This document shows positions 4,497 to 5,719 of a DNA stretch of 64,000 nt, in pieces. Origin of the DNA: Oxalobacteraceae bacterium. GTDB lineage: Bacteria; Pseudomonadota; Gammaproteobacteria; Burkholderiales; Burkholderiaceae_D. A program made the position numbers and the translations under genes. Each line of letters starts with the position of its first letter. Position 1 is the first letter of the stretch. Location: NCBI GenBank assembly GCA_947454475.1, contig CANGLD010000001.1, positions 1-64,000 on the forward strand, written 5' to 3'. Below the pieces are notes generated by a model. That model was not told the origin of the DNA. It ran no database searches and saw only the letters and a program-made list of their open reading frames with translations.

Positions 4497-4790
4497 ATGA
4501 GCACTTACAAAGAACTGCAAGGTCAAATTGAAAAACTACAACATGAAGCGGAAAACGCTAGAAAAAATGAATTAATAAACGCGATCAATGATATTCAAAT
4601 CAAAATGAAAGAATATGGTATTTCTGCAGATGATTTGGGTATAGGCGGTCGCAAAAGACTAGGCAAAGCTACACGCAAACCAGTGGCGCCTAAATATAGA
4701 AATAATACGACCGGAGAAACTTGGAGCGGTCGCGGCAAACCACCAAAATGGATGGCAGGTCACGATAAGTCGCAATACTTAATCAAATAA
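4497..4790 (+). CDS. H-NS family nucleoid-associated protein
   Basis: Coiled-coil N-terminus; C-terminal YRNNTTGETWSGRGKPPKWM DNA-binding motif. Confidence 0.95.
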   Translation: MSTYKELQGQIEKLQHEAENARKNELINAINDIQIKMKEYGISADDLGIGGRKRLGKATRKPVAPKYRNNTTGETWSGRGKPPKWMAGHDKSQYLIK

Positions 4791-4933: not shown

Positions 4934-5530
4934 TTAACGTAAAAAACCGCGCGCGAATCCTAAGAATAGGATGCGCGTATCTAACCAAAATCCTCGCTCT
5001 GCCACATAGCGCTTTGCATAATTTAATCGTATAGGTAAAACCTGCTCCACATAAGCTTGCTCAAGTTCATCGCCTTCTAAACCCGCTAGCATACGTTTTT
5101 CATCTGTAAATTCTATCGTGGCGAGATCAGCCAAACCCGGCTTGATAGACAAAATCAATTTTCTATCTTCAGTAGGATAACAACCTACATAGCGTGGCAA
5201 CTCAGCACGCGGCCCTACCAAACTTAAATCACCGCGCAATACATTCATCAACAAAGGCCATTGCGCGATGCCTAAGCGTCGTAACACACCCCCTACACGG
5301 GTTACTTGCTCATCATGACAACCGCCTACCATTTCCATAGCATCCGGTTCGGTAACAGCTGTATGAAATTCAAATACTTTCACCATCCGACCATGTCGAC
5401 CCACTCGATGAGGACGCGCCAAAACAGGTCCGCGTGATTCCAGCCAAATACATAGCGCAATCAAGATTGCAAACGGCATCAACACCAGCATGGCCAGTAA
5501 AGATAAAACCACATCAACACTACGTTTCAT
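4934..5530 (-). CDS. Small sugar transferase (monotopic phosphoglycosyl transferase family) with degenerate catalytic dyad
   Basis: N-terminal KRSVDVVLSLLAMLVLMPFAILIAL re-entrant helix, NVLRGDLSLVGPRAELPRYV, KPGLADLATIEF; canonical LDELPQL position reads IAQWPLL. Confidence 0.85.
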   Translation of the reverse strand: MKRSVDVVLSLLAMLVLMPFAILIALCIWLESRGPVLARPHRVGRHGRMVKVFEFHTAVTEPDAMEMVGGCHDEQVTRVGGVLRRLGIAQWPLLMNVLRGDLSLVGPRAELPRYVGCYPTEDRKLILSIKPGLADLATIEFTDEKRMLAGLEGDELEQAYVEQVLPIRLNYAKRYVAERGFWLDTRILFLGFARGFLR

Positions 5531-5719
5531 ACTTATCCACTCCTACGAATAATCACTACATCAACTTTGGCTGAATCTCACTCAGTTCTCAATTCAAACA
5601 CAGCAACCCAGCGCTACTACGAATGCGAGCATCACCAAGAGTACAATACTGCTTTTATTTTCTAGCGTGTGCAGGCTCGTTTGCAGCACACGAAAACACT
5701 CTCTTAGTCAGATCATCTC

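What the first reader, a model, noticed from the sequence alone, without database searches (positions are those of the whole stretch)
4934..5530. Phosphoglycosyl-transferase-like protein with the catalytic Asp-Glu dyad replaced by Ala-Gln
The ORF keeps the re-entrant membrane helix and NVLRGDLSLVGPR core of small monotopic PGTs (PglC/WcaJ-type). Where the family has LRxxSLDELPQLxNVLxGD, this protein reads LRRLGIAQWPLLMNVLRGD. Codons at + strand 5261-5266 (ttgcgc) encode AQ in place of DE. The usual FRSM/FRTM segment also reads FEFHTAV. The gene stands alone, outside any glycan cluster. Since the Asp nucleophile is required in characterised members, this may be a pseudoenzyme or have a new role. 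The reading frame is otherwise intact, which argues against simple decay.
Basis: partly seen in the sequence, partly recalled or inferred. Interest (0 to 1): 0.66.

Follow-up and report, generated by a model that had tools for sequence, protein, structure and literature searches.

The report
Conserved sugar-transferase-like protein lacking active site
Every sampled species of a genus of uncultured Oxalobacteraceae-related bacteria keeps, at the same chromosomal spot, a protein with the shape and membrane anchor of a glycan-starting enzyme but with its whole catalytic and sugar-nucleotide pocket replaced, so it has almost certainly been re-used for a new, still unknown job.

Summary
Observation confirmed. 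The 198-aa ORF at 4934-5530 (-) is a genuine monotopic phosphoglycosyl-transferase (monoPGT) homologue (Pfam PF02397, 125 bits). Its AlphaFold model (pLDDT 90) matches only PglC and WbaP among solved structures. The catalytic Asp-Glu is Ala-Gln. This is neither a sequencing error nor a recent loss: all 21 sampled genomes of the genus carry an orthologue in a conserved neighbourhood, and none has the dyad. They read [A/G/S/T/V/E][R/Q]-Trp-Pro instead of Asp-Glu-Leu-Pro. All 51 aligned homologues outside this clade keep Lys59, Met63 and Glu94 (PglC numbering), and 50 keep Asp93. The clade also lost reported uridine contacts (Phe43, Met63, Arg79, the PRP proline), kept the membrane anchor (Lys7-Arg8, Pro24, Asp169) and Arg88/Arg112, and fixed new invariants (His41, Lys51, Glu54, Glu66, Cys71, Glu74, Trp91). 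It is one clade (support 100) under purifying selection (dN/dS about 0.1), while the nucleophile position is now among its most variable sites. In seven of 21 genomes it is the only PF02397 protein; near-complete G003 also has only MraY and no detected Wzx or Wzy. Best reading: a repurposed pseudo-PGT binding a lipid phosphate, new ligand or partner. Its exact function is inferred, not shown.

The parts
4934..5530 (-). pseudo-PGT gene (198 aa, PF02397 fold)
   Evidence: Pfam 124.9 bits; Foldseek to PglC/WbaP E 3e-11; orthologue in 21/21 genomes of the genus
5540..5544 (-). AGGAG ribosome-binding-like motif, 9 nt before the ATG
   Evidence: sequence
5474..5527 (-). first part of the re-entrant membrane helix with kept K2-R3 (PglC K7-R8) and P19 (P24); the Ser of Ser-Pro is Met
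   Evidence: motif roles PMC6133551
5357..5371 (-). E54-F-H-T-A58 in place of K59-F-x-T-M63: invariant Lys to Glu, uracil-contacting Met to Ala
   Evidence: 20/20 E54 against 51/51 K; Met63 role PMC12550135
5306..5335 (-). re-made mobile loop segment: new invariants E66, G70, C71, E74 in the clade; R79 equivalent is Q75
   Evidence: R79 role PMC12550135
5279..5281 (-). kept R84 (PglC R88, reported undecaprenyl-phosphate contact)
   Evidence: invariant in 71/71; PMC10519829
5261..5266 (-). A89-Q90 in place of the catalytic D93-E94 dyad
5258..5260 (-). W91, new invariant (Leu in 49/51 homologues outside the clade)
5204..5224 (-). S-L-V-G-P-R-A: phosphate motif with R108 (R112) kept and the second Pro of PRP lost
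   Evidence: PRP role PMC10653937
4979..4981 (-). kept D184 (PglC D169 equivalent, partner of Lys7)
   Evidence: invariant in 71/71; PMC6133551
4809..4848 (.). 18-bp hairpin with T-runs on both strands: terminator between the convergent pseudo-PGT and H-NS-like genes
   Evidence: z -6.3
4497..4790 (+). neighbour: H-NS family regulator (PF00816), conserved in synteny; not part of the protein

Best explanation
A monotopic phosphoglycosyl transferase from a polysaccharide-type lineage came to sit between pth and ychF in the ancestor of this genus, lost sugar-phosphate transfer, and was repurposed as a membrane-anchored pseudoenzyme. SHOWN by comparison: the fold and re-entrant membrane anchor are kept; the Asp nucleophile, Mg-binding Glu and uridine-contact residues are all gone in every orthologue; a new invariant residue set occupies the same pocket and mobile loop; the gene is genus-wide and under purifying selection; it persists in genomes without any catalytic PF02397 protein. 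INFERRED: it sits on the cytoplasmic face of the inner membrane, still grips an anionic lipid head group such as undecaprenyl phosphate through Arg84, Arg108 and often Arg142, and uses the re-made pocket to bind a ligand or protein other than Mg-UDP-sugar, acting as a lipid-phosphate-binding adaptor or sensor rather than as a PGT. The confidence given is for 'repurposed pseudo-PGT'; the lipid-phosphate part alone is about 0.3.
For: Orthologues in 21/21 genomes (14/14 of the near-complete ones), 56-73% identical. Synteny with the H-NS-like gene and pth on one side in the 20 neighbourhoods examined, ychF on the other in most. Catalytic and pocket positions lost in 20/20 aligned orthologues: K59->E, M63->A (one S), R79->E/Q/H, D93->A/G/E/S/T/V, E94->R/Q, P113->A/V, while K59, M63, E94 and P113 are kept in 51/51, D93 and R79 in 50/51 of the others. 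F43 is lost in all 20 but is F/Y in 35/35 of the nearest catalytic-type relatives; the D93 position ranks at the 98th percentile of variability in the clade yet is D in 35/35 of those relatives. New invariants H41, K51, E54, E66, G70, C71, E74, W91. Single clade, SH-aLRT 100, stem 0.96. dN/dS median 0.095, inside the range of neighbours from prs 0.031 to ispE 0.176. AlphaFold pLDDT 90.5 and significant PDB hits only to PglC/WbaP. Seven genomes hold no other PF02397; G003 (100% complete) has MraY as its only PF00953 protein and no PF01943 or PF04932 match. Reported UndP-contact Arg88 invariant, R145-equivalent Arg in 16/20.
Against: No ligand, partner or phenotype is known. The lipid-phosphate part rests on a few retained arginines that could be structural. 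Pseudoenzymes can migrate catalytic residues (PMC10211241), and conserved E54, E66, C71, E74 or H41 might do chemistry. The model used an alignment containing catalytic homologues, so it does not independently test the pocket geometry. The genomes are mostly MAGs, so absences are weaker than presences. The alignment of R142 to PglC R145 is approximate.
Confidence: 0.72

Rival explanations
1. Neo-enzyme: the fold now catalyses a different reaction on a lipid phosphate or other substrate, using a migrated nucleophile or acid (E54, E66, C71, E74 or H41 are invariant).
For: A fixed set of new polar residues lies in the old active site and mobile loop; most pocket positions are constrained, not relaxed, except the old nucleophile site.
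Against: No metal-binding acid pair is evident at the old Mg site, where Glu became Arg or Gln; no substrate or pathway gene is consistently linked.
Confidence: 0.15
2. Prozyme-like regulator: it pairs with a catalytic PGT of the same cell and controls its activity.
For: Large monoPGTs act as dimers, and one is activated by a partner protein (PMC12802240); the window genome also has a catalytic PGT with SLDELP.
Against: Seven of 21 genomes, three of them 99-100% complete, have no other PF02397 protein; the gene is universal while catalytic PGTs are patchy.
Confidence: 0.06
3. It is still a working PGT with a relaxed or alternative active site.
For: Fold and Arg112 kept; a nucleotide-sugar dehydrogenase gene is adjacent in six genomes.
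Against: Nucleophile, Mg ligand, invariant Lys and reported uridine contacts all lost; no detected Wzx or Wzy in G003 to use a product; the dehydrogenase is missing from, or not next to the gene in, most genomes.
Confidence: 0.04
4. Decaying gene without function, or an assembly artefact.
For: In G020 the protein has an internal in-frame deletion that removes the VGPR core.
Against: Intact in the other 20 genomes from separate assemblies; purifying selection; 57 invariant columns in the clade.
Confidence: 0.03

Closest known systems
Small monotopic PGTs (PglC of Campylobacter; PDB 8E37, 8G1N)
   Same: Size, re-entrant membrane helix, K-R and Pro motifs, Arg88 and Arg112, Asp169, overall fold
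   Different: No Asp-Glu dyad, K59 is Glu, M63 is Ala, F43 and R79 lost, PRP is PR[A/V]; new invariant His, Cys, Trp and Glu residues
Catalytic-type small PGTs of Oxalobacteraceae-like relatives and other Burkholderiales (YKLDELPQL / VGPRPEVPRYV type)
   Same: Nearest sequences outside the clade, 34-50% identical, alignable through the VLSVxPG-xD and C-terminal helices
   Different: They keep every catalytic residue and lie in polysaccharide-type clusters, in at least one case beside a DegT-type aminotransferase
Large PGTs WbaP / WcaJ / EpsZ
   Same: The C-terminal catalytic domain fold
   Different: This protein lacks the N-terminal transmembrane and regulatory domains and the catalytic residues
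Pseudoenzymes in general (e.g. pseudokinases; PMC10211241)
   Same: Fold kept, catalytic motif lost, gene retained by selection
   Different: That review holds no mention of PGTs and a search of the held library for PGT pseudoenzymes returned nothing

Membership tests
Monotopic PGT superfamily (PF02397, by homology) | Significant PF02397 match and PglC fold | tested here: met
   124.9 bits against cut-off 27; Foldseek E 3e-11, TM 0.73 to PglC
Monotopic PGT superfamily (PF02397, by homology) | N-terminal basic motif and helix-break-helix re-entrant membrane helix | tested here: met
   K2-R3 in 20/20 and P19 in 19/20; the Ser of Ser-Pro is Met in the window protein
Functional PGT enzyme | Asp-Glu catalytic dyad with Mg (described for all superfamily members, PMC10519829) | tested here: not met
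   Ala-Gln here, never Asp-Glu in 20 aligned orthologues nor in the 21st, G020
Functional PGT enzyme | Uridine-contact residues (PRP; F43, M63, R79) | tested here: not met
   PR[A/V]; F43, M63 and R79 lost in 20/20
Functional PGT enzyme | Phosphosugar transfer to undecaprenyl phosphate with UMP release | not testable with these tools
   needs a biochemical assay
Pseudoenzyme | Homologous fold, catalytic motif lost, gene retained by selection | tested here: met
Regulatory partner of a catalytic PGT | Co-occurs with a catalytic PF02397 protein | tested here: not met
   absent from 7/21 genomes
Polyprenyl-phosphate-binding protein | Basic residues that contact UndP (R88, R145, K179 in PglC) | tested here: inconclusive
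   R88 invariant, R145 equivalent Arg in 16/20 by an approximate alignment, K179 not mapped

The most novel reading that the evidence does not exclude
A first pseudoenzyme clade of the monotopic PGT superfamily whose pocket has been rebuilt to bind or act on a different ligand at the membrane face, as a core genus-wide function independent of lipid-linked glycan synthesis.
Probability: 0.5. Interest if true: 0.75.

Novelty: new variant of a known kind. Interest (0 to 1): 0.56.

Why it matters
The monotopic PGT superfamily is described as carrying an Asp-Glu dyad in all its members (PMC10519829). A genus-wide, selected clade that discarded the dyad and the reported uridine-contact residues but kept the membrane anchor shows that this fold can be used for something else. 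It gives a natural set of substitutions for learning which parts of the fold grip lipid and which grip sugar nucleotide. It also warns that PF02397 annotation ('sugar transferase') can be wrong in function for such proteins.

Tried and rejected
A displaced Asp-Glu at D73-E74 was considered and rejected: it aligns to the D77 loop and D73 is private to this species. Sequencing error and recent loss were rejected by 21 genomes. Partnership with a catalytic PGT was rejected as a general rule by seven genomes lacking one. A constant link to a glycan operon was looked for: a UDP-glucose dehydrogenase-like gene is adjacent in six genomes only. A first scan of genome contigs with the single protein found nothing; the alignment-based scan found 20 loci, all pseudo-PGT type, whose contig sizes match genomes of this genus. 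The first structure job on 15 close sequences was poor (pLDDT 53) and was replaced by one on 71 sequences. No paper on PGT pseudoenzymes was found in the held library. The ancestral locus was looked for in 11 related genomes: ten have no pth or pseudo-PGT within 1.5 kb of ychF (one of these is cut at the contig end), and one (G056) has pth directly before ychF with nothing between.

Full report
OBSERVATION. The ORF at 4934-5530 (-) encodes 198 aa with an AGGAG motif 9 nt before the ATG. It hits only PF02397 Bac_transf in Pfam, at 124.9 bits, and the best solved-structure sequence match is C. concisus PglC. In that alignment Ala89-Gln90 fall on D93-E94, Glu54 on K59, Ala58 on M63, Ala38 on F43, Gln75 on R79 and Ala109 on P113 of PRP, while K2-R3, P19, R84 and R108 match K7-R8, P24, R88 and R112 (chain numbering minus 4).

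NOT AN ERROR, NOT RECENT. All 21 genomes held for the genus have an orthologue, 56-73% identical, and none has Asp-Glu: the site reads [AGSTVE][RQ]WP. Gene order is conserved: in all 20 further neighbourhoods the H-NS-like gene and pth lie on one side (with rplY, prs, ispE and lolB as far as the contig reaches), and ychF is found on the other side in most. A scan of one genome per species in GTDB r220 with an alignment of the clade found 20 loci, all of this type and with contig sizes matching the genus genomes; their record titles are mostly Oxalobacteraceae, Burkholderiaceae or Burkholderiales MAGs. Samples of 394 genomes of the family and 399 of the order found relatives at 34-50% identity, and those examined keep Asp-Glu.

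WHAT CHANGED. In a 71-sequence alignment (20 clade members, 51 others) the clade differs from the others at positions that are invariant or nearly so in those: K59 (now Glu 20/20), M63 (Ala 19, Ser 1), R79 (Glu, Gln or His), D93 (A/G/E/S/T/V), E94 (Arg 17, Gln 3), L95 (Trp 20/20), Q97, M106, P113, T137. PMC12550135 ascribes contact with uracil to M63, F43 and R79; PMC10653937 names DE as catalytic and PRP as uridine-binding. Retained are the anchor motifs (K7-R8, P24, D169; roles in PMC6133551), R88, reported to contact undecaprenyl phosphate (PMC10519829), and R112. New strictly invariant residues include H41, K51, E54, E66, G70, C71, E74 and W91. The nucleophile position ranks at the 98th percentile of variability among the clade's sites although several neighbours are fixed. 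Release of the nucleophile with tight constraint around it is what a repurposed pocket predicts and what simple decay does not.

EVOLUTION. The clade is one side of a branch with SH-aLRT 100 and a long stem of 0.96 changes per site. Pairwise NG86 dN/dS has median 0.095 (20 pairs, dS below 1.2), compared with 0.031 for prs, 0.058 for pth, 0.089 for rplY, 0.135 for lolB and 0.176 for ispE. Nearest catalytic-type relatives lie in polysaccharide-type clusters; in one the neighbour is a DegT-type aminotransferase by Pfam, and similar proteins are seen beside others by eye. In one related genus, G056, pth and ychF are adjacent with no PGT or H-NS gene between, which suggests that the pair came in by insertion; the other related genomes have a different ychF neighbourhood.

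STRUCTURE. AlphaFold2 on the 71-sequence alignment gives pLDDT 90.5 and pTM 0.83. Foldseek against the PDB finds WbaP and PglC at E about 3e-11 and nothing else significant. No coordinates were available, so a proposed charge swap (E54 with R/Q90 in place of K59 with E94) remains inference.

PATHWAY CONTEXT. Catalytic PF02397 proteins are patchy: seven of 21 genomes (G001 99%, G003 100%, G004, G011, G017, G019 99%, G020) have only the pseudo-PGT. In G003 the single PF00953 protein is MraY, within a mur gene cluster, and no PF01943 flippase or PF04932 polymerase/ligase was found. The gene therefore outlives the Wzx/Wzy-type glycan machinery, which argues against both a hidden PGT activity and a subunit role for catalytic PGTs. 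Other flippase families and ABC-dependent export were not searched. In six genomes (G003, G004, G008, G010, G016, G019) a UDP-glucose dehydrogenase-family gene is divergently adjacent, in some with a large ALTTAQ-repeat protein; in others type I secretion-like ABC/OEP genes are nearby. These links are lineage-specific.

MECHANISM. Shown: fold, anchor, loss of catalysis-defining residues, new invariants, selection, independence from catalytic PGTs. Inferred: a cytoplasmic-face monotopic protein that keeps part of the lipid-phosphate grip and binds a new ligand or partner. A new chemistry cannot be excluded (PMC10211241 notes migrated catalytic residues).

VERDICT. By descent it belongs to PF02397; as an enzyme it fails the tested defining features, so it should not be called a phosphoglycosyl transferase. 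It is a new variant of a known kind: a conserved pseudo-PGT clade. No earlier description was found in the held literature, which does not cover most subscription journals.

Noticed in passing
L023 / G020:C40:1995-2513: The G020 orthologue has an in-frame deletion removing the VGPR core; its N-terminal half is divergent while its C-terminal half closely resembles the G015 orthologue: recombination, erosion or assembly chimera.
   Followed up: no
L027 (G039:C2:278847-279419): A PGT-like protein in another family of the order reads INELPQL, i.e. Asn for the catalytic Asp with Glu kept: possibly an independent loss.
   Followed up: no
L033:2511-6368, L042, L043: Large ALTTAQ-repeat protein (PF20080, 12 repeats in L033) between the dehydrogenase gene and ychF; type I secretion-like ABC and OEP genes occur on the same side of the pseudo-PGT in L035 and L052.
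   Followed up: partly
window 4497-4790: H-NS family protein conserved beside the pseudo-PGT; both are absent between pth and ychF in related genus G056 (L188), so they may have arrived together.
   Followed up: partly
G003, G001, G004 genomes: Species that appear to lack catalytic PGTs and the searched Wzx family, suggesting loss of lipid-linked surface glycans within the genus.
   Followed up: partly
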